Part shown: positions 12,133 through 59,810 of the stretch, piece by piece
Layout of the letters: each line of letters starts with the position of its first letter
How positions within the stretch are numbered: the first letter of the stretch is position 1
DNA from: Streptomyces sp. NBC_01707
GTDB taxonomy: Bacteria > Actinomycetota > Actinomycetes > Streptomycetales > Streptomycetaceae
Assembly (NCBI RefSeq): GCF_041438805.1
Contig: NZ_CP109190.1
Coordinates: 8,556,001 to 8,620,000 of the forward strand
DNA length: 64,000 nt
Direction: 5' to 3'
Translations under genes and position numbers: made by a program
The notes under the pieces: model-generated
What the model was told of the DNA's origin: nothing
What the model saw: only the letters and a program-made list of their open reading frames with translations
Databases searched by the model: none

Positions 12133-13347
12133 GTGAGCAGCGAGAACGCAGACGCCGGACGTGAGCCGGAAGAGTCGTCCGTGTGGGACGTCGTCGTAGT
12201 CGGCGCCGGGCCGGCCGGAGCCTCCGCGGCATACGCGGCGGCGGTAGCCGGCCGACGGGTATTGCTGCTGGAGAAGGCGGAACTGCCCCGGTACAAGACC
12301 TGCGGCGGCGGCATCATCGGATATTCGCGTGATGCGCTGCCACCCGGATTCGAACTGCCGTTGCAGGACCGGATCCACGCGGTGACGTTCTCGCTCAACG
12401 GCAGGCTGGCGCGGACGCGCCGTTCCAAGCGGATGCTCTTCGGGCTCATCAACCGGCCCGAGTTCGACGCCGGTCTGGTCGAGGAGGCACAGAAGGCGGG
12501 CGCCGAACTCCGGACCGGAGTGACGGTGACACGGGTCGAGCAGCACGGCGCCGCGGTCCCGGACCGGCGCACGGTCGCCGTGGTGCTGTCCGGCGGCGAG
12601 ACCGTCCTCGCCCGTGCGGTCGTCGGCGCCGACGGCAGCGCGGGACGCATAGGGGCCCATGTCGGGGTGAAGCTCGACCAGGTGGACCTCGGCCTGGAGT
12701 CGGAGATCCCGGTCCCGGCGACGGTCGCGGAGGACTGGGCGGGGCGGGTGCTGATCGACTGGGGCCCGATGCCCGGTAGTTACGGCTGGGTGTTCCCGAA
12801 GGGCGACACCCTGACCGTCGGTGTGATCTCGGCGCGCGGCGATGGCGCGGGGACCAAGCGGTATCTCGAGGACTTCATCGCCCGGCTCGGCCTCGCCGGT
12901 TTCGAGCCGAAGATTTCCTCCGGTCATCTCACGCGCTGCCGCAGCGACGATTCGCCGCTGTCGCGCGGGCGGGTGCTCGTCTGCGGCGACGCGGCCGGCC
13001 TGCTGGAGCCGTGGACCCGTGAAGGCATCTCGTTCGCGTTGCGTTCGGGGCGGCTCGCCGGTGAGTGGGCGGTCCGGATCGCGGAGTCGCACGACGCGGT
13101 GGACGCCCGCCGCCAGGCGCTCAACTACGCGTTCGCCATCAAGGCCGGACTCGGCGTCGAGATGGGTGTCGGCAGGCGCATGCTGAAGCTCTTCGAGCGC
13201 CGCCCGGGCATACTGCACGCGGTGCTGACCGGATTCCGCCCGGCCTGGAAGGCGTTCGCCGGGATCACCCGCGGGACCACTTCGCTGGCCGAGCTGGTCC
13301 GTACGCATCCGCTGGCGCAGCGCGCCCTGTCGGCGATGGACCGCTAG
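12133..13347 (+). CDS. Geranylgeranyl-reductase family FAD protein
   Basis: The 404-residue flavoprotein has the dinucleotide-binding motif VVGAGPAGASAAYAAA at its N-terminus, the YKTCGGG segment typical of geranylgeranyl/digeranylgeranyl reductases, and the second FAD motif VLVCGDAAGLLEPWTREGI. Related enzymes saturate isoprenoid chains such as menaquinone side chains or lipid precursors. GTG 12133 is favoured, with GGGAG 12 bases upstream; GTG 12094 is an alternative. A TAGGAT box at 12078-12083 is a likely -10 element. The TAG stop lies inside the first bases of a mobile-looking repeat (13344-13570), so the original C-terminus may have been altered by the insertion. Confidence 0.88.
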   Translation: MSSENADAGREPEESSVWDVVVVGAGPAGASAAYAAAVAGRRVLLLEKAELPRYKTCGGGIIGYSRDALPPGFELPLQDRIHAVTFSLNGRLARTRRSKRMLFGLINRPEFDAGLVEEAQKAGAELRTGVTVTRVEQHGAAVPDRRTVAVVLSGGETVLARAVVGADGSAGRIGAHVGVKLDQVDLGLESEIPVPATVAEDWAGRVLIDWGPMPGSYGWVFPKGDTLTVGVISARGDGAGTKRYLEDFIARLGLAGFEPKISSGHLTRCRSDDSPLSRGRVLVCGDAAGLLEPWTREGISFALRSGRLAGEWAVRIAESHDAVDARRQALNYAFAIKAGLGVEMGVGRRMLKLFERRPGILHAVLTGFRPAWKAFAGITRGTTSLAELVRTHPLAQRALSAMDR

Positions 13348-13570
13348 GGCCTCCCGTTCGGATCATGCTGGGCTCACGGGGGCCGGCACGCGGATCTGCC
13401 GCGTTGTCGTGGGTCTTCCCCGAGCTCTCGGCTTCGATCGAGCAGGGGAGACCCCCTGCGCTCCGCGTGGGCCCCTTCGTCCGCCTTGCAGCCGCACGCA
13501 CCACGGTGACATCAGCCGCTGCGCGGCGGGCCGCTCCCTGAGCCGGCCTGATCCGGACGAAGGACCCTGG
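13344..13570 (+). repeat. MITE-like repeat with terminal inverted repeats, copy A
   Basis: The element of about 227 bp begins CTAGGGCCTCCCGTTCGGAT and ends with ATCCGGACGAAGGACCCTGG. Its two ends are imperfect inverted repeats of each other (20 of 28 bases agree, by eye). An almost full-length related copy lies in the opposite orientation at 25536-25745 and one end alone at 49976-50018. It has no coding capacity of its own. The CTAG end forms the stop codon of the upstream flavoprotein gene. Confidence 0.75.
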
Positions 13571-48996: not shown

Positions 48997-50014
48997 GGCC
49001 GACTTCCCGTTCTTCAGAGCGCGGTGGTGACGGATCAATGCGTTGGCGGACGAGCCGTGGCGGGCTCCGGCTCCTGGGCGATGCCGTCATGTCCTCGCCC
49101 ACCGCCGCGACTGCACCAGCTCCCGTGCGACCTCGGCCACCCGCTACGGGGCGAATCCGAGCTCCGTGAGCACGAGGGGCACCCCGGCGAGCACCGACCT
49201 GTTCAGCCGTCCGGAGCCCTTCCGGCTTCCTGAATCACATCCGGAACTTCAGCAGTCAGGTCCGGGTTCCGGACCTACTTCATGAGTGCGTTCATCGACT
49301 TCGGGATGACGCTCAGCGGTGTCCTGTTCTCGGTCCGCGAGGGTCAATATCTTGCGGAGTTCGCCGTCCGAAGGAGATCTGCACGCGCCGCTCATCGCAA
49401 CCACTCCCGACCATGGTTGCGCTGAGGCGGGCTCACCTTCGGTGGCCTGTTGGGTGTGTCCGGCCTTGCGAGCGGCCTCGGTCGGCGGCCCGTTGCTCGT
49501 GATCGAGCCCCTAATGTAAGGGCTGTCCCGTAATCCCTGGTGGATCGGCGCGCGGCGTCGGATGTGGCAGATCGTCGAAGTGCGCCGCGCGCCGGAAGGC
49601 GAGGCCGCCCATCTCGCGGCCACCCGCGCCACACCGTCCGACCTCGCCCGGATGCGTCAGGCCCTGGCCGCGATCGACGCGGCGGTCGCGGTGGGCGGTG
49701 ACGGTGCGGAGGAGGATCTCGCCTTCCACCGGTCCATCGCGGAGTCGACCGGGAACACGGTGATGGGCTCGACGGTGCGGTACCTCGGCGAGGTGCTGCG
49801 CAGCGGTATGCGCGTCACGCGCGCGAACGAGGCGCGACGGGGCGACTTCGTCGAAGCCGTCCGGCAGGAGCACCATGCCGTCCTGGCCGCCGTCGAGGCC
49901 GGCGCCGCCGAGGAGGCGCGCGCCGCCGCTTGAGGCACGCCGCCTCACGGCTGCAGGACGCGGTCGACGGATTCCGGGCCGCTCCCTGATCCAGCCTGAT
50001 ACGAACGAAAGACC
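48997..50014. other. Degenerate region with regulator remnant and repeat end
   Basis: There is no intact gene. The plus strand carries a broken GntR-type regulator (49550-49970). Near 49100-49230 the minus strand reads SVLAGVPLVLTELGFAP, an in-frame stop, then RVAEVARELVQSRRW, another apparent remnant. The right end is the repeat fragment at 49976-50018. Confidence 0.55.
49550..49970 (+). pseudogene. GntR/FadR regulator remnant (FCD domain only)
   Basis: From about 49562 the sequence encodes WQIVEVRRAPEGEAAHLAAT, LARMRQALAAIDAAV, EEDLAFHRSIAESTGN and RQEHHAVLAAVEAGAAEEAR, the effector (FCD) domain of GntR regulators with its metal-ligand His residues. The N-terminal DNA-binding domain is absent. 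At the end a frameshift near 49932 introduces a stop (…ARAAA), while the expected continuation LRHAASRLQDAVD lies in another frame. Confidence 0.7.
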
Positions 50015-50018
50015 CTAG
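49976..50018 (+). repeat. MITE-like repeat, solo end (copy C)
   Basis: GGGCCGCTCCCTGATCCAGC...GAACGAAAGACCCTAG matches the right end of copy A (13528-13570) and ends in the same CCCTAG-type border. Only this end of about 43 bp is present. Its CTAG supplies, on the opposite strand, the TAG stop of the sbnA-like gene. Confidence 0.65.
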
Positions 50019-51094
50019 GTCTTACGATCCTGGAGCTGATGGTGCTGGTCGCCGTTGAGGTCGCCGGTCTGCAGGTCCAGCCGCCGGCGCCACCGTGCCA
50101 CCGGCGCGTCCGAGTCCCAGGAACCGGCATTCACCTCACGGGAGTTGAGCACGTCCTCGCCGTAGATGTCCTCCAGCCAGTTGGTGTGGTAGATGGTGTC
50201 GAGGTAGCGCTCACCGAGGTCCGGGCCGATCGCCACCGCGGTGAGTTCGCGCGCGTCATGCCGGGCCAACCAGTCCGACGCGCCGCTGACCACCGTGCCG
50301 GTCGAGCCGCCCAACAGGAATCCGCGCCTGGCCAGACGATGACAGGTACGAATGGTGTCCGCCTCCTCGACACGTATCACCTCGTCCACATAGGACTCGT
50401 CGAGCAACGGCGGTCGCATGCTCATCCCCAGGCCGGGAATCATCCGGCGGCCCGGCGGGCCGCCGAAGGACACACTGCCGACGCTGTCCACCGCGACGAT
50501 CCGCACCGGCCGGTGCCATTCCCGGAAGTAGCGCGCGCAGCCCATCAGGGTTCCGGTGGTCCCGGCCCCGACGAACAGCACGTCCAGCCGCGGGAACTGG
50601 CGGGCGATCTCCGGCGCTGTCGTGCGGTAGTGCGCCTTCCAGTTGCTCGGATTGGTGTACTGGCTGAGCCAGACGTACCGGTCGTCGGAGGCGCACAGCG
50701 CGCGGATGTACTCGATTCGCGCACCGAGGAAGCCGCCGTTGGCCTCCTGGTCGGCGATCACGTGCACCTGGCTGCCCAACGCCTCCATCATCAGCCTGGT
50801 CGACAGGTTGCCGCGGGCGTCCGTCACGCACAGGAACCGGTAGCCCTTGCTCGCCGCGATCATGCTCAGTGCCACGCCGAGGTTTCCGGACGAGGACTCG
50901 ACCAGGATCGATTTCGGCGTCAGGACTCCATCTCGCTCAGCCGTCTCCACCATCTCGGTCGCGGCCTTCAACTTGATCGAGCCGGCGAAGTTGAAGCCCT
51001 CACACTTCAGGTAGAGCGAGTGCCCGAAGATCGACCGAAGGTCGACATAGAGCTCTTCTTCATTGAAGGCGTAGGGAACGGATATGACGGGCAC
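50015..51094 (-). CDS. sbnA: SbnA-like 2,3-diaminopropionate biosynthesis protein
   Basis: The 359-residue PLP enzyme resembles staphyloferrin-B SbnA, which joins O-phospho-L-serine and L-glutamate to give N-(1-amino-1-carboxy-2-ethyl)-glutamate. PLP lysine is in FNFAGSIKLKAATEM, the substrate loop is ESSSGNLGVALSM, the phosphate loop VGAGTTGTLMGCARY, and GFLLGGSTGTVVSG lies near the end. GTG 51094 is chosen because GGAGGAG lies 6 bases upstream; the nearby ATG 51109 contains that RBS. It is the last gene of the operon, 209 bases after sbnB. The stop codon and end ...LQDRKT fall at the border of a repeat, so the natural C-terminus may have been changed. Confidence 0.9.
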   Translation of the reverse strand: MPVISVPYAFNEEELYVDLRSIFGHSLYLKCEGFNFAGSIKLKAATEMVETAERDGVLTPKSILVESSSGNLGVALSMIAASKGYRFLCVTDARGNLSTRLMMEALGSQVHVIADQEANGGFLGARIEYIRALCASDDRYVWLSQYTNPSNWKAHYRTTAPEIARQFPRLDVLFVGAGTTGTLMGCARYFREWHRPVRIVAVDSVGSVSFGGPPGRRMIPGLGMSMRPPLLDESYVDEVIRVEEADTIRTCHRLARRGFLLGGSTGTVVSGASDWLARHDARELTAVAIGPDLGERYLDTIYHTNWLEDIYGEDVLNSREVNAGSWDSDAPVARWRRRLDLQTGDLNGDQHHQLQDRKT

Positions 51095-51303
51095 CGTGGT
51101 CTCCTCCATCTGGCGCAGAGCAGTTTCGGAACGTCCATCCGACCGTGGGTGGGCTTCTCGCGTCCTGTCGCCGGGAGCCCGTGTCCGACCGAGCCGGGCG
51201 GCCCTGCGTCAGCGGCCGCTGTTCCGTCTGTCCTGACCTGCGACGTGACCGGGGATCTCTCCTGGGACCGGCCCTGCACAAGCCTCCTGGGATCTCGGCC
51301 GGC

Positions 51304-52374
51304 TCATCCGTACCGGCTCAGTTCGTGGAAGAAGTCGTCGACGACGTGCAACTCTCCGCTGCGGACCACTTCGTCGTAGACGTCCTTGCCCACCGCGAGG
51401 TCGAGCACCCCGAGGCCGAAGGGCGAGAACACCACCGGTCGGTCCGTCGGCACCGTCACGCGTGCGGCCATCACGTCGTCCAACGTGCCGTGCAGGAAGT
51501 CCCGGTTGCCCGTGAGCTGCTCGGCCAGGTGCGGCGAGGTGTCGGCCTTCAGACAGTGCTCGACGTCATCGACGATGTTGGTCGAGGCGAGCAGGATCTC
51601 CGGTGCGAGGTCGCGCAGCGACACGTGCAGCACCAGTGGATTGTGGGCGAACCATGACACGTCGCTGACATGCGGCTGGCCGGCGACGGTTGCGAAGACG
51701 ACAAGGTCGCTGTGTCGGATCAGCTGCTGGGCGCTCTCGTGCACGGTGATCCGGCCGGTGGCGCCCGTCTGTTCCAGGTAACAGCGGAAGCCTGCCGCAC
51801 TGTCGGCGGACAGGTCGTGCACGCCGATCTCGTCGAACGACCAGCCGGTGCCGGCCAGGAAGGTGTGGATGTAGCGGGCGATCAAGCCCGCCCCGAAGAA
51901 CCCGACACGCGTCGGGCGTGGCCGGTCGCGGCTCAGCCAGTCGGCGGCCGACGCCGCCGACGCCGCCGTCCTGGTGGCGCTGATGATCGAGCTCTCCAGG
52001 CAGGCGAACGGGTAGCCGGTGTCGGGGTCGTTGAGGATCAGAACGGCTGAGGCCCTCGGGATGCCCGCCGTCACGTTGTCCGGGAAGCTGGAGATCCACT
52101 TCAGGCCGTCCACCCGTACCTCCCCGCCGATCGAGGCGGGCAGCGCGATGATCCGGGAGGACGGACGGTCGGGGAAACGCAGGAAGTACGACGGCGGGTT
52201 CACCGAATCACCGGCGCCGTGCACCCGGTAGGTGGCCTCGACCAGCTCGACGATTCGTTTCTCACGTCCGTGCAGCGCGCGCCGGACCTGGGCACCGGAG
52301 ATCACCGCGAACGGTGGCACGGTGATCGGCGCGGACAGGGCGGACTCCGGTGCGGTGGAAGCGACGGCGGTCAT
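51304..52374 (-). CDS. sbnB: SbnB-like 2,3-diaminopropionate biosynthesis protein
   Basis: The 356-residue ornithine-cyclodeaminase/mu-crystallin-fold enzyme should oxidatively cleave the SbnA product with NAD+ to give L-2,3-diaminopropionate, 2-oxoglutarate and NADH. The Rossmann motif is RVGFFGAGLIARYIHTFL; the substrate site includes RVDGLKWISSFPDN and ESSIISATRTAA. Length and the SSFPDN and ISATRTAA segments fit SbnB. It starts within the stop of the oxygenase gene (ATGA). The 2-oxoglutarate released is the cosubstrate of that oxygenase, a neat metabolic link. Confidence 0.92.
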   Translation of the reverse strand: MTAVASTAPESALSAPITVPPFAVISGAQVRRALHGREKRIVELVEATYRVHGAGDSVNPPSYFLRFPDRPSSRIIALPASIGGEVRVDGLKWISSFPDNVTAGIPRASAVLILNDPDTGYPFACLESSIISATRTAASAASAADWLSRDRPRPTRVGFFGAGLIARYIHTFLAGTGWSFDEIGVHDLSADSAAGFRCYLEQTGATGRITVHESAQQLIRHSDLVVFATVAGQPHVSDVSWFAHNPLVLHVSLRDLAPEILLASTNIVDDVEHCLKADTSPHLAEQLTGNRDFLHGTLDDVMAARVTVPTDRPVVFSPFGLGVLDLAVGKDVYDEVVRSGELHVVDDFFHELSRYG

Positions 52375-53375
52375 CCTGTGGTCACCTCGACGGTCGGCGA
52401 GCAGTCGGCCAGATGCACCGGGTCGGCCATGGCGACGAGCACTTCACGCGGTCCCTCGAAGGGCTCCCTGCTGTGCGCGGTGCGGATGTTGTCGACGAGC
52501 ATCAGGTCGCCGGCCTGCCAGGGCTCGCGTGCGGTATTGGCCTCGTAGACGCTGTTGAGCAGCTGCACGACGTCCTCCCCGATCGGGTCCCCGTTGCCGA
52601 AGCGGGTATTGAACGGCAGTCCGTCGGCGCCGTAGAGGTCCACCAGGTACTCGCGCACCTCGGGGGCCATCGTCCACTCGTTGAGGAACGCGATCTGGTT
52701 GAACCAGCAGCGCCGGCCGCTGACCGGGTGACGCACCACGGCGCTGCGGCGCTGTCCGGTGCGCAGTCCACCGTCGGGCTGCCACTCGAAGGTGATCGCG
52801 TTGGCGCGGCAGTAGCTCTCGACGGCGCCACGGTCATCGGTGCCGAACGCCTCGGCGACGGTCGCCCCGATCTCGTCGTTGTAGCTGCGGGTGAGCAGCC
52901 AGCCCTCCCGCTCGAACCGCTCGGTCAACTCGGCGGGCAGCGCGTCGAGCACGGTCGGTGAGTCGGCCAGCGCGGTCGCCCCGCCGTCAGTGGGCGCGCT
53001 GAGACAGGCGAACATCATCATGCCGGGGAACTCAAGCGTGTAGCTCAGTTCGTGGTGCATGCACATCGGCTGGTTCGGCGGCCACTTCGATGAGGAGTAC
53101 ACGCCGTCGGAGTAGGTCCTGCGGGGCGCGAAGACCTCCTTCTCGGTCATCAGACCCGCGGCCAGGCTCGAGAAGACGGCGCCCGTTCCGGCTGCGTCGC
53201 TCAGCCCGAGGCCGCGGACCAGGACCGAACCGTGCTCGGCGACGACCGCGCGCAGCGCGTCCCGGTGATCGGCAGCCCAGCTCAGCGCGTCGCCGGTGGC
53301 CTCGGCCCGCAGCAGCGGGGGCTTGCCGGGTTCACGTTCCACGTCGACCAGCGACGCCGTGGATAGTGACGACAT
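52371..53375 (-). CDS. TauD/SyrP-like Fe(II)/2-oxoglutarate oxygenase
   Basis: The 334-residue oxygenase has the iron motif His-x-Glu in MCMHHELSYT, the distal His in LVDNIRTAHSREPF and the 2-oxoglutarate-binding Arg in EGPREVLVA. FACLSAPTDGGATALADS and FNQIAFLNEW are typical of the SyrP/clavaminate-synthase-like group, whose members beta-hydroxylate amino acids, often on an NRPS carrier protein. Position between NRPS and sbnB (ATGA overlap) suggests hydroxylation or desaturation of Dap or of a carrier-bound residue. AAGGA precedes ATG 53375. Confidence 0.88.
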   Translation of the reverse strand: MSSLSTASLVDVEREPGKPPLLRAEATGDALSWAADHRDALRAVVAEHGSVLVRGLGLSDAAGTGAVFSSLAAGLMTEKEVFAPRRTYSDGVYSSSKWPPNQPMCMHHELSYTLEFPGMMMFACLSAPTDGGATALADSPTVLDALPAELTERFEREGWLLTRSYNDEIGATVAEAFGTDDRGAVESYCRANAITFEWQPDGGLRTGQRRSAVVRHPVSGRRCWFNQIAFLNEWTMAPEVREYLVDLYGADGLPFNTRFGNGDPIGEDVVQLLNSVYEANTAREPWQAGDLMLVDNIRTAHSREPFEGPREVLVAMADPVHLADCSPTVEVTTG

Positions 53376-53398
53376 CTCGGTGTCCTTTCAGTTGCCAC

Positions 53399-56300
53399 TC
53401 AGGAAGAAGCGAACAGATTGGCGGCGCGCAGCACGGCTTGCGCCGCCTCGGTCGGACGGGTGCGCAGGAAGTAGTGGCCTCCGTCGGCGAGCTCGTGCAG
53501 GTCGACCTGCTCGGCCAGGAGCTGCCAGTCGCGGTACCGGCGTGGGTACTCCGCCGCGCTCGGGTCGTCGGCTGCAACGACCACGGTGACCGGCGCGGAC
53601 AGCTTGAGCACCGGCGGGCTGTCCAGCGCGTCGGCGAAATAGTGGTGTGCGGACACGCAGTCGTGCCGGTAGGCGGCACCGATGTGCTCGGCGTGCCGCG
53701 CATCCAGCTCACCGAGCTCGGTGTACGCGCCGTCCGCGCTCAGCCTCGCGGCGATCTCGGCGTCGCTTCGCCCCGTCAGCTCTGTGACGGTGGCGCGCCG
53801 GTCGTCGGCGCTGCCGAGCAGCTGCGCCCCGAGGAACACCCGCTGGACGTCCACCCCGCGCTCCTGCAGCCTTCCGGCTGTCTCCACGGCCAACGCGGTG
53901 CCCGAGGAATGGCCCCACAGCAGGACCTTGGTCAAGCCACGCCCGATGATCTCGACCACGACCTGCTCGACCACCTGGGCCATCGGAGCGAACGGCTCGC
54001 TCCCGGCAGCCACGTCGTGACCGGGCAGCTCGACGGCGAGGACCGCCGGGCCGCCGGCCGACAGTGCCCTGGCCATCGGCAGGAAGTTCACCGCATTGCC
54101 GCCGGCGTAGGGGAAGCACACCAGGGCGGCGGGCTGCGTACCGTCCGATTCCGACAGCGACTGAAGCAGCCCGGAGCGCCGCTCGGAGTGCCGCTCGGAC
54201 CTCCCGTCGACCACCCCGGCCAGATCGGCGAGCACCGGGTGTCGGGTGACGTCCTTGAGGGACACCGCACGGTCCAGGGTGATCGCCAGCTTCACCGCCG
54301 ACAGCGATGTGCCGCCCCGGTCGAAGAAGTGGTCCCCCAGTCCGATCTGGTTCTCCGGAATGCCGAGCACCTTGGCCCATGCGGCCGCCAGTTGCCGTTC
54401 GGTCGGTGTGACGGGCGCGCGGTACTCGTCCTGGACGGCACCGAGCTCTCCGGCGAGCGCCCGCAGCGTCTTCCTGTCGATCTTGCTGTTGGCCGTCAGC
54501 GGCAGACTTTCCCGCCAGTGGAAGGCCGACGGCACCATGTAGTCGGGAAGCGACTCACCGAGCCGGTCCAGCAGGATGCCGACCTCGAGTTGCCGCCGAC
54601 CGGAGTAGAACGCCACCAGGTGCTTACTCCTGTCGGCCCGCTCGGTGACCACCACCGCACCGTCGCGAACACCGGGCACCCGCAACAGGGTGTTCTCGAT
54701 CTCGCCGATCTCGATCCGGAAGCCGCGGATCTTCACCTGGTTGTCCCGGCGGCCGAGGAACTCCAGCTTGCCCCCGGGCTGCCAGCGGCCGTAGTCACCG
54801 CCCCGGTAGAGCCGGGCACCCTTACGGTGCGGATCGGCCAGATATGCCTGCCGGGTTCGCTCGGGGTCGTTGACGTAGCCGCGGCCGACGCAGACGCCGG
54901 AGAAGACGATCAGACCGGGGGCGCCGAGCGGCACCGGGGTCAGGTGCTCGTCGACGACGTACACGTGCACGTTGTTGACCGCGGGACCCAGCAGGATCCG
55001 GTCCCCGTCGGGCACGCGGTCCATGACCTCGTGGTTGGTGTCGTCCGAGGTCTCGGTCAGCCCGTACGCGTTGACCAGCTTGATCCCGGGCTGGGCGGCG
55101 AACCAGCGCTGGGCGAGCTCCTTCTTCAGCGCCTCGCCGGTGACCGACACGCATCGCAGGTCCGGCAGCTCGCGGGGGTGCCGCTTCAGACTGGACACGA
55201 CGACGTCCAGGTAGGAGGGAACGACCTGGAGGACGGCGACCCGGCCGTCGACGATCTTGTCGACGAACCGCTGGACGTCCAGGATCACCTCCTGCTCCAC
55301 CAGCAGGGTCCGCCCGCCGACCAGCAGTCCGGACACCAGCTGCCACAGCGAGATGTCGAAGCACTGGGGTGCGGTCTGGGCGACCACCTGTCCCTCGCGG
55401 ATCTCCAGGTCGTCGATCTTGGCGTAGAGGTGGTTCAGCATGCCCGCGTGCTCGCACATCGCCCCCTTGGGCTCGCCCGTGGAGCCGGAGGTGAAATAGA
55501 TGTAGGCGAGCTGGTCCGGTGCGACGGGGAGGCCCAGATCGTCGTCGGCATGGTCCTCCTCGTAGGCCGCGGCGACGAAGAGCCTCTGGATCCCGGACAG
55601 AGAGCCGAGTGCCTGGTCGAGCGTGGAGGTGCTGCCGGGTTCGGTCAGCACAAGTCCGCATGTGGCACGGGAGAGCATGGCCGCGACGCGATCGGCCGGG
55701 TAGTGCGGCTCGATGGGCAGGTACACACCGCCGGCCTTGAAGACAGCGAGCACGGCGGCCATCCAGTCCAGGTTGCGCTCGGTCACCACCGCGACGACAC
55801 CCTCGGGGCGCAGCCCCCGCGCCAGCAGGGCCCGCCCCACCCGGTTGGCGCGCGCGTTGAGTTCCCGATACGTCAGCTGCTGCTCTTTGTGCACGGCGGC
55901 TACGGCATCCGGGTGAGCCGCCACCCGCTGCTCGAAGAGCTCGTGGAACCGGTGGTCCGGCAGCTCCCGGCGTGGACCGGCGAGTTCTTCGAGCTGGAAG
56001 CGGAGTTCCTCGGCGGAGAGCAGGCTCTGCCGCTCGTGTTCGACGTCCGGATCGGCGGTGACGAGCGCGAGGGCGGTGAGATGATAGCCGGCGATCCTGG
56101 CCGCGCAGTCCGCGTCGAGCGCATCGGTCCGGTACCGCAGCCGCAGCACGAGATGGCCGCCGCTTTGTGAAAATCCCACCCACAGCACGGTGTTGCCGGG
56201 GATGTCGCCGCCCGAGCCATGGGGATCGAACACGGTCTCGATCGGCGGTTCGGCCAGTCCCAGCTCGCGCCTGAGCTCATCGACCGGAAAGTCCTTGTGC

Positions 56301-56665
56301 AACAGCAGATCCGACGCGGCTCGATGGGCGTCCATCAGCAGCGTCCGCCACGAGCCGGGGTCGGTCGTCAGCCGGCAGGGCAGCGGTCGGCCGCCCTCCG
56401 CAGTGACGTAACCGGTCGCGACCTCGTGCTCGCCGGACAGCGAGGCGAGCACCTTGGCGTGCGCGGCCAGCAGCACGGATTCGAGCGGCACCGCCAGGTC
56501 CTTGGCCAACCGGCCCGACGCTGCCACGACGTCGTCCGGGATCGTCGCCTCGTGTTCGCCGACGCCCGCCACCGGATCGAGGGTCCACCGCGGTATTGCG
56601 GTGAATCCACCGGCTAGGAGCACAGTGCGCCAGAACTCCCGGTCGGCCTGCACTTGCTTTCCCAT
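53399..56665 (-). CDS. NRPS: half-condensation, adenylation, carrier, thioesterase
   Basis: The 1088-residue protein has four parts. Residues 1-230 match only the C-terminal half of a condensation domain and lack HHxxxDG. The adenylation domain (about 240-745) has A3 YFTSGSTGEPKGAM (near 390), A4 CFDISLWQL (433), A5 NAYGLTETSDDTNHE (532), A8 GGDYGRWQPGGKLEFLG and A10 LPLTANSKIDRKTL. The carrier shows DHFFDRGGTSLSAV (Ser about 784). The type-I thioesterase has GHSSGTALAVE (about 920) and a late His in DGGHYFL. The by-eye specificity code is D-I-W-Q-S-T-A-D-D-K; two acidic residues suit a basic side chain such as Dap. Start 56665 has GAGAGGGA upstream. Confidence 0.92.
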   Translation of the reverse strand: MGKQVQADREFWRTVLLAGGFTAIPRWTLDPVAGVGEHEATIPDDVVAASGRLAKDLAVPLESVLLAAHAKVLASLSGEHEVATGYVTAEGGRPLPCRLTTDPGSWRTLLMDAHRAASDLLLHKDFPVDELRRELGLAEPPIETVFDPHGSGGDIPGNTVLWVGFSQSGGHLVLRLRYRTDALDADCAARIAGYHLTALALVTADPDVEHERQSLLSAEELRFQLEELAGPRRELPDHRFHELFEQRVAAHPDAVAAVHKEQQLTYRELNARANRVGRALLARGLRPEGVVAVVTERNLDWMAAVLAVFKAGGVYLPIEPHYPADRVAAMLSRATCGLVLTEPGSTSTLDQALGSLSGIQRLFVAAAYEEDHADDDLGLPVAPDQLAYIYFTSGSTGEPKGAMCEHAGMLNHLYAKIDDLEIREGQVVAQTAPQCFDISLWQLVSGLLVGGRTLLVEQEVILDVQRFVDKIVDGRVAVLQVVPSYLDVVVSSLKRHPRELPDLRCVSVTGEALKKELAQRWFAAQPGIKLVNAYGLTETSDDTNHEVMDRVPDGDRILLGPAVNNVHVYVVDEHLTPVPLGAPGLIVFSGVCVGRGYVNDPERTRQAYLADPHRKGARLYRGGDYGRWQPGGKLEFLGRRDNQVKIRGFRIEIGEIENTLLRVPGVRDGAVVVTERADRSKHLVAFYSGRRQLEVGILLDRLGESLPDYMVPSAFHWRESLPLTANSKIDRKTLRALAGELGAVQDEYRAPVTPTERQLAAAWAKVLGIPENQIGLGDHFFDRGGTSLSAVKLAITLDRAVSLKDVTRHPVLADLAGVVDGRSERHSERRSGLLQSLSESDGTQPAALVCFPYAGGNAVNFLPMARALSAGGPAVLAVELPGHDVAAGSEPFAPMAQVVEQVVVEIIGRGLTKVLLWGHSSGTALAVETAGRLQERGVDVQRVFLGAQLLGSADDRRATVTELTGRSDAEIAARLSADGAYTELGELDARHAEHIGAAYRHDCVSAHHYFADALDSPPVLKLSAPVTVVVAADDPSAAEYPRRYRDWQLLAEQVDLHELADGGHYFLRTRPTEAAQAVLRAANLFASS

Positions 56666-56727
56666 CTGGTCGTCCCTCTCCGTTCGCCGTCGCCACCGAG
56701 CCGTTCGCCCCGACTAGGGCGGCGCTG

Positions 56728-59262
56728 CTATCCCTTCCTCGTCAGTGCCTCGGGCCGATAAGGGGCATCGCGCATCTCCGTGGCGGGGTTTCCCCCCCAG
56801 CGTGCGTGCTGGGGGACTTCCTCGCCTTTCATGAGGAAGGAGTCGGGGGCGAGTACTGCGCCGTCGCCCATCGTCACGCCGTAGTGGACGTGGGCTCCCA
56901 CACCGAGGGTGCAGCCCGGGGCGATGGTGCTGCGATCGGACTTGAAGGTGCCGTCCTCCTGGGAGTGGCACTGGATCTTGGTTCCGGCGTTCAGCGTGCA
57001 GTCGCTCCCGATGGTGGTGAGCGTCCGCTCCGTCAGATAGCAGCCGTCATCGAAGACCCTGCTGCCGATCCGAACACCCAGCATCCGCCAGATCACGTTC
57101 TTGAAAGGGGTGCCGTTGAAGACGTTGAGGTACGTGTCGGGCACCTTCCAGAGGCGCTCGTGCCACCAGAAGTACGGGTCGTAGATGGAACACAACTGTG
57201 GTCGCAGCGCCCGGAATGCCGCGATACCGCGTTCCACCAGTACGAAGTAGACAGCGGTGAACCCAAGGCTGAACACCAGGAACACAGCGATCAGCACATG
57301 CCCGTAGGAGTCGTACAGTTCGGCGTTCGCCAAACCGAGAATCGTGAGCACGAAGAAGTGCAGCCACCGCACCAGCAGGAAGAAGACCATCGAGCGGATG
57401 TTGTAGCGGTTCTTCGCGGCGAGGCTGCGGCGCAACTCGTCGCCCGTCCGCAGATGGTCGAACCGGGAGTCGCGCTCGACCGACCGGGGGATCTCGAAGC
57501 ACGGCGAGCCGAGCAGGCCCACCCCCTCGCGCACCTCGCCGTCGAGCGGAACCATCACCTTCGTCGCCAGGAGACAGTTCTCACCCGTTCTGGCCCCTGA
57601 GGGATAGGCGATGTTGTTCCCGAGAAAGTTGTACGGGCCGATCGAGGCCCGGGACACCCGGAAGGACGTGCTCGAGAACTCGGCATTAACGATGGAGAGC
57701 CCGTCGGCGACCATCGTCCCGGTGCCGACAGAGCACAGATACGGGGTCTCGTGCTGCACTTCCGTGCCGAAGTTCGACCCGGTCTGCTCGACCCGGGACA
57801 AGTCGTATCCGAGGCCGCGCAGGTAATGGACGATGTAGGAGCTGTCACCGAACAGCCATTTGAAGAACTTGATGTTGGTCATACGCCCGATCGCCCGGTG
57901 CGCCGAGTAGTGAAAGCCGTACAGCGGATAGACCTTGTCCGGCTTGACGACCAGGTTCAGCAGGCGCGGAACGGTGAACAGCACGGCCAGACCCACGACG
58001 ACGAAGCCGAAGAACAACACCAGGGAAAGGAGCAGCGCGTCGATGTAGAGATCCGTCGACGTGAACCCCATCGTGTCCGGGCCCAACCGGTTGTTCAGCG
58101 CCGGAACCAGGGTCACCAGCATGTACGCGCCCCCGACAGTCAGCGGTACGTAGAGGAAGAGCATCTGAAGCACGGTGACGAGGCCGAAGCCCGCCCGGCG
58201 CAGCGTGCTGCACCTGGCCGGCCCGATCCTCAGGTAGTCGTGCTGCGCGAGCTGCGCCGGGGATCCGTGCCAGCGCTGACCGCCCGGGACGGCCTGGCCG
58301 CTGTACAGCGTGGACGTGTGGCCGAGCTGCGCCCCGTCGCCCATCGATGTGTCGATGTCGAGGACGGTCTTCTCGCCGATGAACACGTCCCGGCCGAGGG
58401 TGACGCGGCCGGTCTGGATGCGGCCGGCGTGCGCCCGGTAGCAGAGGAAGAACGAGTCCTTACGGATCACCGTGCCGGGGCCGATCGTGAGCAGGTCGGG
58501 GCAGACCGGAACGTTGCGGGAGAGGATCGTGACCCCCTTGCCGATCCGTGCGCCCAGGGCCCGCAGGTACAGCACGTACAGGGGATTGCCGACGAAGAAG
58601 ATCATCGGGTTGGCGTGGATCAACACCTTGACGGTCCAGAAACGTAGATACGTCAGGCCCCAGACCGGGAACTCGCGCGATTTCTGCCGGCCGACGAGGA
58701 GCCATTTGGCCGCGATCGGGAAGGTGCAGAGACCGACGAATCCGGTGCCGCCGAAGACGAACGATCGCAGGTAGATGTCGATCACATCCGAGCCGGCGGA
58801 GACCCATGCATAGCCCAGGTCGGCAACAAGTCCGGCGAGGAACGAATATCCCAGGAAGAGCAGGAACTGCAGCGTTCCGCAGAGGGCGTACCGCACCGTG
58901 CCGACCGGGGTCACCACCTCGGTCGACACCGGGGCCGACGATTCGACAGGGGCGGGCGCGGTGTCCGCGAGCCCCGTCGCCAGGCTTCGGATGGTCGGGT
59001 TCCGGTAGATGTCCTTCATCGACGCCGACGGGAGGTCCGTCCGCTTCCTGACCCGTGCGCAGAAGTGGGCCATCACCAACGAGTTGGCGCCCAGGTCGTC
59101 GAAGAAGTGGCTGTCGACCGACACCCGTTCGACGCACATGACGTCAGCGAGCACCTCGGCGAGATCTCTCTCGATGCCGGGCTCCGGGTCGGTGTACCCG
59201 CACTTGTCGATCGCGGATTCATCGGGCCCGGGCGTCAGGACTTCGAGGGATTTCTCCTCCAT
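56728..59262 (-). CDS. Carrier domain plus Pls/PosA-type membrane terminal domain
   Basis: The 844-residue protein starts with a peptidyl-carrier domain (DSHFFDDLGANSLVMAHFCA, phosphopantetheine Ser about 61). After a linker come six or more membrane helices (TLQFLLFLGYSFLAGLVADL; LVTVLQMLFLYVPLTVGGAY; others) interspersed with left-handed beta-helix hexapeptide regions (GARIGKGVTILSRNVPVCPD, IGPGTVIRKDSF; C-terminal IGSDCTLNAGTKIQCHS). This layout is the terminal region of poly-epsilon-lysine-synthetase-like proteins (Pls/PosA group; TIGR02353-type domain), where it catalyses chain elongation. Here it is separated from the adenylation domain. First gene of the operon; AAGGAG precedes ATG 59262. 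Confidence 0.88.
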   Translation of the reverse strand: MEEKSLEVLTPGPDESAIDKCGYTDPEPGIERDLAEVLADVMCVERVSVDSHFFDDLGANSLVMAHFCARVRKRTDLPSASMKDIYRNPTIRSLATGLADTAPAPVESSAPVSTEVVTPVGTVRYALCGTLQFLLFLGYSFLAGLVADLGYAWVSAGSDVIDIYLRSFVFGGTGFVGLCTFPIAAKWLLVGRQKSREFPVWGLTYLRFWTVKVLIHANPMIFFVGNPLYVLYLRALGARIGKGVTILSRNVPVCPDLLTIGPGTVIRKDSFFLCYRAHAGRIQTGRVTLGRDVFIGEKTVLDIDTSMGDGAQLGHTSTLYSGQAVPGGQRWHGSPAQLAQHDYLRIGPARCSTLRRAGFGLVTVLQMLFLYVPLTVGGAYMLVTLVPALNNRLGPDTMGFTSTDLYIDALLLSLVLFFGFVVVGLAVLFTVPRLLNLVVKPDKVYPLYGFHYSAHRAIGRMTNIKFFKWLFGDSSYIVHYLRGLGYDLSRVEQTGSNFGTEVQHETPYLCSVGTGTMVADGLSIVNAEFSSTSFRVSRASIGPYNFLGNNIAYPSGARTGENCLLATKVMVPLDGEVREGVGLLGSPCFEIPRSVERDSRFDHLRTGDELRRSLAAKNRYNIRSMVFFLLVRWLHFFVLTILGLANAELYDSYGHVLIAVFLVFSLGFTAVYFVLVERGIAAFRALRPQLCSIYDPYFWWHERLWKVPDTYLNVFNGTPFKNVIWRMLGVRIGSRVFDDGCYLTERTLTTIGSDCTLNAGTKIQCHSQEDGTFKSDRSTIAPGCTLGVGAHVHYGVTMGDGAVLAPDSFLMKGEEVPQHARWGGNPATEMRDAPYRPEALTRKG

Positions 59263-59810
59263 GCGAGCTCCTTGAGGAACTTTCGAGAGCCGTCGGCCAT
59301 GACGGTCGGCGCCCTTTGCGCGCGCTTTTCGATGGCCGGATCGAAAGGTCCGGAAGTCATGAGGCCGGGTATTTTGTCCGGTTCGAACACCGTTGCCTCA
59401 GTCTCGGCTGGCCTCCGTCGGGCTGCCACTCGAACTGCCCGGTTCGTTCCTGGTCCACGGTTCCGACGGGAGGGACGGCGATGAGCCGCGTAAGGGTCAT
59501 GGCCCACTGCGTGCGAGTGGCGTGTGGCCGACTCGGCAGGGAGCTGCGCCGGGTCGTGTGACGGCCAATTGGGAGAGCGCCGCGGGGTGATGACGGCTCC
59601 CGGGACGCCGCGGCTTCGATACGGCAGGGCGACGCCCACACGCTGTTCGGCGGTCGCACGGTGGTGCACACGGCCGGAACCGTCCCAAGTGCGTCGATCC
59701 AGTGAGGTACCGCCATCCGGGGGTCACGGCCCCGCGACCGCGGCCCTCGCCGGGACGTCCACCGTGCCCCGCCCACCGCCACGCCGCGGTCGCCGAAAGC
59801 AGTGCTCGGC
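59263..59810. other. Intergenic region upstream of the NRPS operon
   Basis: No convincing gene is seen on either strand. It separates two leftward operons and should contain the NRPS operon promoter and the thiolase operon terminator. No clear hairpin, operator or -10/-35 pair was recognised by eye. Confidence 0.55.

What the first reader, a model, noticed from the sequence alone, without database searches (positions are those of the whole stretch)
50015..59262. Five-gene operon for an L-diaminopropionate-based non-ribosomal product
SEEN: SbnA and SbnB homologues, an Fe/2-oxoglutarate oxygenase, one A-T-TE NRPS and a carrier/Pls-type membrane protein lie in one leftward run with ATGA overlap or short gaps. 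KNOWN: SbnA/SbnB make L-Dap from phosphoserine and glutamate; Pls-type terminal domains polymerise amino acids iteratively. A poly-Dap polymer is reported from Streptomyces albulus, so relatedness to that locus must be tested before claiming novelty. INFERRED: this operon makes a Dap polymer or capped Dap amide, perhaps hydroxylated.
Basis: partly seen in the sequence, partly recalled or inferred. Interest (0 to 1): 0.85.

Follow-up and report, generated by a model that had tools for sequence, protein, structure and literature searches.

The report
Split, oxygenase-linked diaminopropionate polymerase operon
A compact five-gene unit, shared by many Streptomyces, looks built to make the small amino acid diaminopropionate, oxidise it on a carrier and string it together at the membrane; its product is unknown, and its layout differs from the one studied poly-diaminopropionate pathway.

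Summary
The five genes are real, at the stated coordinates, on the - strand. SbnA and SbnB pass their NCBIfam cut-offs. The NRPS is half-C/A/T/TE, the oxygenase has a TauD fold with an intact H-x-E...H iron site, and the fifth protein is a carrier plus Pls/PosA terminal domain with no adenylation domain of its own. The set is conserved: 76 of 80 loci chosen by the Pls gene and 18 of 20 chosen by the oxygenase carry all five; the oxygenase occurs in 133 of 384 genomes of the genus. The A-domain code DIWQSTADD is identical in 79 of 79 sequences. As published, the S. albulus PDAP pathway differs: a one-chain A-T-Pls synthetase, unlinked L-Dap genes, no oxygenase or TE described. The Pls part groups with Dap/Dab-type synthetases, apart from the polylysine type. 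Best reading: a split Pls system in which L-Dap is loaded in trans, oxidised on a carrier, then condensed at the membrane. Dap activation, the oxidation product, and polymer versus short amide remain unproven; free beta-hydroxy-Dap would be an unstable hemiaminal.

The parts
56728..59262 (-). First gene: carrier (T) domain plus Pls/PosA terminal domain, 844 aa; no adenylation domain. T about 58963-59190 (Ser61 codon 59080-59082), TIGR02353 part about 56782-58884
   Evidence: Ser61 in 81 of 81 aligned sequences
53399..56665 (-). Second gene: NRPS, 1088 aa: half-C (about 56066-56665), A (about 54446-55948), T (about 54200-54397, Ser787), TE (about 53411-54133, Ser920, His1064)
   Evidence: A code DIWQSTADD in 79 of 79
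52371..53375 (-). Third gene: Fe(II)/2-oxoglutarate oxygenase of TauD fold, 334 aa; likely iron ligands H107, E109, H301
   Evidence: H107 and E109 in 77 of 77, H301 in 76 of 77, the exception being frame-broken L077
51304..52374 (-). Fourth gene: SbnB equivalog (L-Dap synthesis), 356 aa; ATGA overlap with the third gene
50015..51109 (-). Fifth gene: SbnA equivalog (L-Dap synthesis), 364 aa; begins 194 nt after SbnB ends

Best explanation
A self-contained operon for an oxidised L-2,3-diaminopropionate (Dap) isopeptide. SbnA and SbnB make L-Dap, as in staphyloferrin B from O-phosphoserine and glutamate (family knowledge; S. albulus NjxA/NjxB were reported to need L-Ser and L-Orn). The A domain of the NRPS activates Dap and loads its own T domain; the SyrP/DdaC-like Fe/2OG oxygenase oxidises the carrier-bound Dap (beta-hydroxylation or desaturation); the unit is passed to the T domain of the Pls protein, whose membrane domain, which has no A domain of its own, joins units through side-chain amines and exports the chain. 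The TE is optional, a release or proof-reading activity. Shown here: gene content, catalytic motifs, conservation, absence of the in-chain A domain. Inferred: substrate, oxidation, hand-over, polymerisation, export.
For: Five-gene set conserved in 76 of 80 and 18 of 20 loci in different surroundings. A code identical in 79 of 79 sequences and in 19 of 19 NRPS-bearing TauD-chosen loci; its two Asp suit a short cationic side chain (inference). A published code of beta-OH Dab, DVWQMIGDDK (section 16 of PMC12283262), shares six of ten positions, taking K728 (78 of 79, one cut row) as the tenth. Pls part groups with one-chain synthetases of DF-type code, one next to ectB, i.e. Dab supply, apart from the polylysine type (100/100). 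Its T domain is 55% identical to that of the ectB-linked synthetase, 34% to the operon's own NRPS T. In Pseudonocardia plasmids (2 of 4 records opened) the oxygenase lies beside a Pls whose in-chain A domain looks decayed: L119 has no SGSTGxPK match and, by eye, no C-terminal A subdomain. 0 of 15 loci of the other Pls clade had a TauD, SbnA or SbnB match (E 1e-15) in their 19-20 kb.
Against: No product is known. Hydroxylating free Dap at either carbon gives a hemiaminal (recalled chemistry). The oxygenase/A-T/SbnA/SbnB cassette also occurs with no Pls match in the 20 kb fetched (L125, L157, L161, L162), so it is not a dedicated polymer module. TE is kept in 65 of 76 Pls-chosen operons, which a pure polymerase would not need. 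The A code is unassayed; where it or a near code sits beside SbnA-like genes of another type (L123, L118) those score below the SbnA cut-off, 209 and 238 bits against 349.95, so their product may not be Dap. Whether Pseudonocardia cells hold a trans A-T protein was not tested. The tree leaves the order of branching among the T-Pls and one-chain relatives open. The best fold match of the oxygenase, At3g21360, has no stated function.
Confidence: 0.5

Rival explanations
1. The product is a plain or comb-like poly-Dap (Dap side chains on a poly-Dap backbone) and the oxygenase has a side role. The separate A-T-TE would add the second Dap.
For: A comb-like Dap polymer from a polylysine-producing Streptomyces is reported (Takehara 2021, not held; seen only as cited in passages of PMC10522769 and PMC9606270); a dipeptide repeat would suit two carriers. 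The Pls part is of the Dap/Dab lineage.
Against: The oxygenase is in all 76 complete Pls-chosen operons, with its iron ligands in 75 of them (exception: frame-broken L077), and sits beside Pls in Pseudonocardia where the A domain looks decayed. TE is absent in 14 of 18 TauD-chosen operons.
Confidence: 0.17
2. No polymer: the NRPS and oxygenase make a free oxidised Dap amino acid (released by TE) or a short capped amide; the Pls protein condenses once or only exports.
For: TE retained in 65 of 76; two of the four Pls-less cassettes keep TE (L157, L162); A-T/oxygenase/TE trios are a known way to make free modified amino acids (recalled).
Against: TE is missing in 11 of 76 and 14 of 18 operons that keep Pls, and two of the four Pls-less cassettes lack it (L125, L161). 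Pls proteins down to 56% identity share many invariant columns.
Confidence: 0.2
3. A dapdiamide/APV-like epoxy-amide antibiotic.
For: The Pantoea vagans cluster also has SbnA, SbnB, TauD and an A-T NRPS in one run; identities to the window 45, 43, 34 and 30%.
Against: No DdaG/DdaF amide ligase in the operon; the genome's best DdaF match is 203.5 bits against a cut-off of 840, about 2.1 Mb away (DdaG was not searched genome-wide); A code differs, DSEDIGVIN.
Confidence: 0.03
4. A siderophore or metallophore.
For: SbnA/SbnB make the L-Dap of staphyloferrin B (start of abstract of PMC3179956 in the listing).
Against: An iron-box-like pattern (recalled) was not above chance in the window (3 found, 4.36 expected); a Zur-like pattern (recalled) gave 2 against 0.76 expected, neither upstream of the operon; the five genes include no uptake system.
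Confidence: 0.05

Closest known systems
Poly(L-diaminopropionic acid) pathway of Streptomyces albulus PD-1
   Same: L-Dap from an SbnA/SbnB-type pair; Pls-type membrane terminal domain with one carrier
   Different: One A-T-Pls chain; njxA/njxB not near the synthetase; L-Ser and L-Orn reported as substrates; no oxygenase or TE described (PMC4668381 parts 1-3 of 5)
Pls/PosA synthetases (epsilon-polylysine, delta-polyornithine, poly-Dab)
   Same: TIGR02353 domain far above cut-off, Pls-type carrier
   Different: The window protein lacks the in-chain A domain; the other, polylysine-type clade is 25-31% identical by aligned segment
Dapdiamide/APV (herbicolin I) cluster, Pantoea
   Same: SbnA, SbnB, TauD-family oxygenase and A-T NRPS adjacent. 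DdaC is stated to catalyse the epoxidation, and a cited title says DdaD tethers the substrate (passages of PMC3535389)
   Different: Amide ligases, not Pls; separate TE-like gene; different A code; gene order reversed
SyrP-type carrier-dependent beta-hydroxylases
   Same: TauD fold, H-x-E...H; the S. avermitilis orthologue is named 'putative SyrP-like protein' by its source
   Different: Partner A domain has DIWQSTADD, not an Asp-type code; SyrP itself was not compared (its substrate is recalled)

Membership tests
Pls/PosA poly-amino-acid synthetase | TIGR02353 terminal domain | tested here: met
   877.7 bits, cut-off 423.1
Pls/PosA poly-amino-acid synthetase | Adenylation domain in the same chain | tested here: not met
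   Only PP-binding and Hexapep in Pfam; 844 aa against 1296 aa or more in 21 of 27 Pls-family frames listed
Pls/PosA poly-amino-acid synthetase | Iterative isopeptide formation | not testable with these tools
   Needs an enzyme assay
S. albulus PDAP-type pathway | Single-chain A-T-Pls synthetase | tested here: not met
   A and Pls are separate genes; compared with the published description, not with its DNA
SbnA / SbnB L-Dap synthases | Score over the curated equivalog cut-offs | tested here: met
   386.5 over 349.95; 419.7 over 326.9
Carrier-dependent Fe/2OG oxygenase (SyrP/DdaC-like) | TauD fold with H-x-E...H and an adjacent A-T protein | tested here: met
Carrier-dependent Fe/2OG oxygenase (SyrP/DdaC-like) | Activity on a carrier-bound substrate | not testable with these tools
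   Needs an enzyme assay
Dapdiamide cluster | Amide ligases with the core genes | tested here: not met
   None among the five genes; no DdaF over cut-off in the genome; DdaG not searched
Dap-activating A domain | Specificity code | tested here: inconclusive
   DIWQSTADD invariant but unassayed; no paper held contains the string

The most novel reading that the evidence does not exclude
The operon makes an oxidised homopoly(amino acid): a poly-Dap whose units are beta-hydroxylated or desaturated on a separate NRPS carrier before a Pls enzyme stripped of its A domain condenses them. The in-chain A domain was lost, or decayed, because it would have loaded unmodified monomer. None of the eight bacterial homopoly(amino acid)s listed in the passages seen of PMC9606270 is an oxidised one.
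Probability: 0.3. Interest if true: 0.8.

Novelty: new variant of a known kind. Interest (0 to 1): 0.58.

Why it matters
About a third of the sampled genomes of the genus (133 of 384) carry the oxygenase, and 18 of 20 sampled oxygenase loci have the full operon, yet the searches made found no product or description (open-licence papers only). A split Pls system with a modifying enzyme would show that polycationic isopeptides can be tailored before polymerisation, and it offers a concrete five-gene target for expression in laboratory Streptomyces.

Tried and rejected
Siderophore regulation: iron-box-like pattern not above chance; Zur-like pattern weak and not upstream. Flanking genes as part of the cluster: rejected, widest family in 17 of 101 loci. 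Dapdiamide membership: rejected. Halogenase: unlikely, the acidic iron ligand is present in 77 of 77. S. avermitilis locus numbers sav7161-7165 and 'nrps7' are recalled; the search gave 22 papers, and none of the 20 listed holds a sav term. A structure of the Pls protein was never predicted, nor was the Foldseek 'pdb' search run. The solved relative 9yut was not identified further and is not among the 50 entries shown.

Counting choices. The 20 TauD-chosen loci were picked by me from the listed places, spread down the ranking and favouring long contigs; two come from one genome (G040). In one search, L061 (no NRPS) and L077 (broken frame) fell out, leaving 78 loci plus the window. Presence means over 45% of a segment covered; L077 passes although its frames are broken. 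One search scored at most two candidates a genome. Of the 15 loci of the other Pls clade, 8 had their A code read and 11 are in the tree. One search held one meaningless short row and was redone.
Full report
OBSERVATION. The window lies in a 9.9 Mb genome, GC 70%; its nearest named relatives are Streptomyces. The five genes lie at the given coordinates on the - strand, in the order Pls, NRPS, TauD, SbnB, SbnA. Two features were missed: the NRPS begins with the C-terminal half of a condensation domain (a below-cut-off Pfam match, and residues 9-820 aligned to McyA), and the Pls protein carries a T domain but no A domain. The SbnB-SbnA gap is 194 nt.

CONSERVATION. Of 188 encoded relatives of the Pls protein in genome contigs the best 80 were kept, 79 from Streptomyces and one from Kutzneria. 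Of these, 76 have all five genes, three run into a contig end (L018, L049, L065), and L061 has the Pls gene alone; order and strand are the same in 76 of 76. One of the 76, L077, has broken frames. Chosen instead by the oxygenase, 18 of 20 sampled loci have all five, 17 of them in the same order; L157 lacks Pls and L154 keeps SbnB and TauD only. The oxygenase at E <= 1e-130 occurs in 133 of 384 genomes of the genus and at E <= 1e-75 in 7 of 396 genomes across the phylum. No flanking family is wider than 17 of 101 loci. The genome itself has one Pls-family protein and one SbnA over cut-off.

OPTIONAL PARTS. TE is missing in 11 of 76 and 14 of 18 complete operons, the half-C domain in 4 of 76 and 2 of 18. 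The core is therefore SbnA, SbnB, A-T, oxygenase and T-Pls.

SUBSTRATE. The nine code positions read DIWQSTADD in 79 of 79 aligned sequences, while 96 of 299 A-core residues are invariant. The same code occurs in Pls-less relatives L125, L157, L161, L162, in L127 and in L123; L118 and L126 have DIWQATCDD. L125, L157, L161 and L162 keep SbnA and SbnB. L123 and L118 instead carry SbnA-like, ATP-grasp, argH-like and kinase genes; their SbnA-like proteins score 209 and 238 bits, below the cut-off of 349.95, so their product may differ from Dap. I read the code as Dap, without an assay. A published code that goes with beta-OH Dab, DVWQMIGDDK, is similar (PMC12283262: passages and section 16 seen; its tables are not held). 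No held paper has our code.

POLYMERASE LINEAGE. In a tree of 31 Pls domains the window groups with 19 near relatives, one-chain synthetases from plasmids among them, apart from 11 of the polylysine-type clade (100/100); branching inside the near group is partly open, so the number of A-domain losses is not settled. The near one-chain enzymes with intact codes that were aligned read DFECLSVVT or DFEALGTVT; one lies next to ectB, i.e. 2,4-diaminobutyrate supply. PMC10522769 (passages and sections 10 and 13 seen) says that Dap/Dab synthetases have Phe at the second code position. The other clade read DAESIGTVV in 8 of 8 loci whose code was aligned; a further remote enzyme, L163, reads DFEYNGTVT. 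0 of 15 loci of that clade had TauD, SbnA or SbnB matches in their 19-20 kb. Among 27 Pls matches in 396 genomes, with at most two candidates scored per genome, 21 sit in frames of 1296 aa or more and 6 in short ones; 5 of the 6 short ones lie beside the oxygenase (coordinates compared by eye). In Pseudonocardia plasmids, two of four records opened, the oxygenase is next to a Pls with decayed A motifs. So absence of a working in-chain A domain goes with the oxygenase; my inference is that it prevents loading of unmodified monomer. Exceptions exist: solo T-Pls genes without the operon (L061, L124, L181).

COMPARISON. The S. albulus PDAP pathway (parts 1-3 of 5 of PMC4668381 read) is a one-chain synthetase with unlinked L-Dap genes; the window is not that arrangement, but the S. 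albulus DNA was not seen. The dapdiamide-type cluster shares four gene kinds but not the ligases or the A code. Searches for hydroxylated Dap, NAPAA with Dap, and SyrP/Pls/Dap combinations showed no description of this operon in their listings, within an open-licence library.

CHEMISTRY. Both carbons that bear hydrogen in Dap also bear nitrogen, so hydroxylation of the free amino acid would give a hemiaminal likely to lose ammonia; desaturation, or hydroxylation next to an acylated nitrogen, would be more stable. This is recalled chemistry and the main weakness of a 'hydroxylated poly-Dap'.

VERDICT. A real, widespread, apparently uncharacterised split Pls system: a new variant of a known kind; product unknown.

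Noticed in passing
window about 59390-59436 (-) and upstream of Pls in relatives: A relic of oxygenase coding sequence (EFEWQPDGG-like) lies just upstream of the Pls start; 10 of 70 stretches examined give a tblastn match, the window's own only by eye in the alignment. It suggests a former tandem operon copy.
   Followed up: partly
   Followed up: no
L124, L181, L183: Pls-family genes without the operon on plasmids; metal or anion transport genes lie near those of L124 and L183.
   Followed up: no
L128-L134: Oxygenase relatives (45-48%) beside an A domain of DAQD-type code in larger NRPS clusters of seven genomes.
   Followed up: no
L118, L123: SbnA-like, ATP-grasp, argH-like lyase and kinase genes next to the same kind of A domain: perhaps another route to Dap or a relative.
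   Followed up: partly
L125: Dap cassette near a 3-phosphoglycerate dehydrogenase-like gene, a DsbA-like gene and, by eye, SDR-like and ketosynthase-like genes; perhaps an acyl-Dap pathway.
   Followed up: no
L157:637-4272 and 12448-13446: A-KR-T protein and a second, weaker TauD protein next to a Pls-less Dap cassette.
   Followed up: no
window 49562-49933 (+): A 123-aa FCD-domain ORF next to the operon, possibly a regulator remnant.
   Followed up: no
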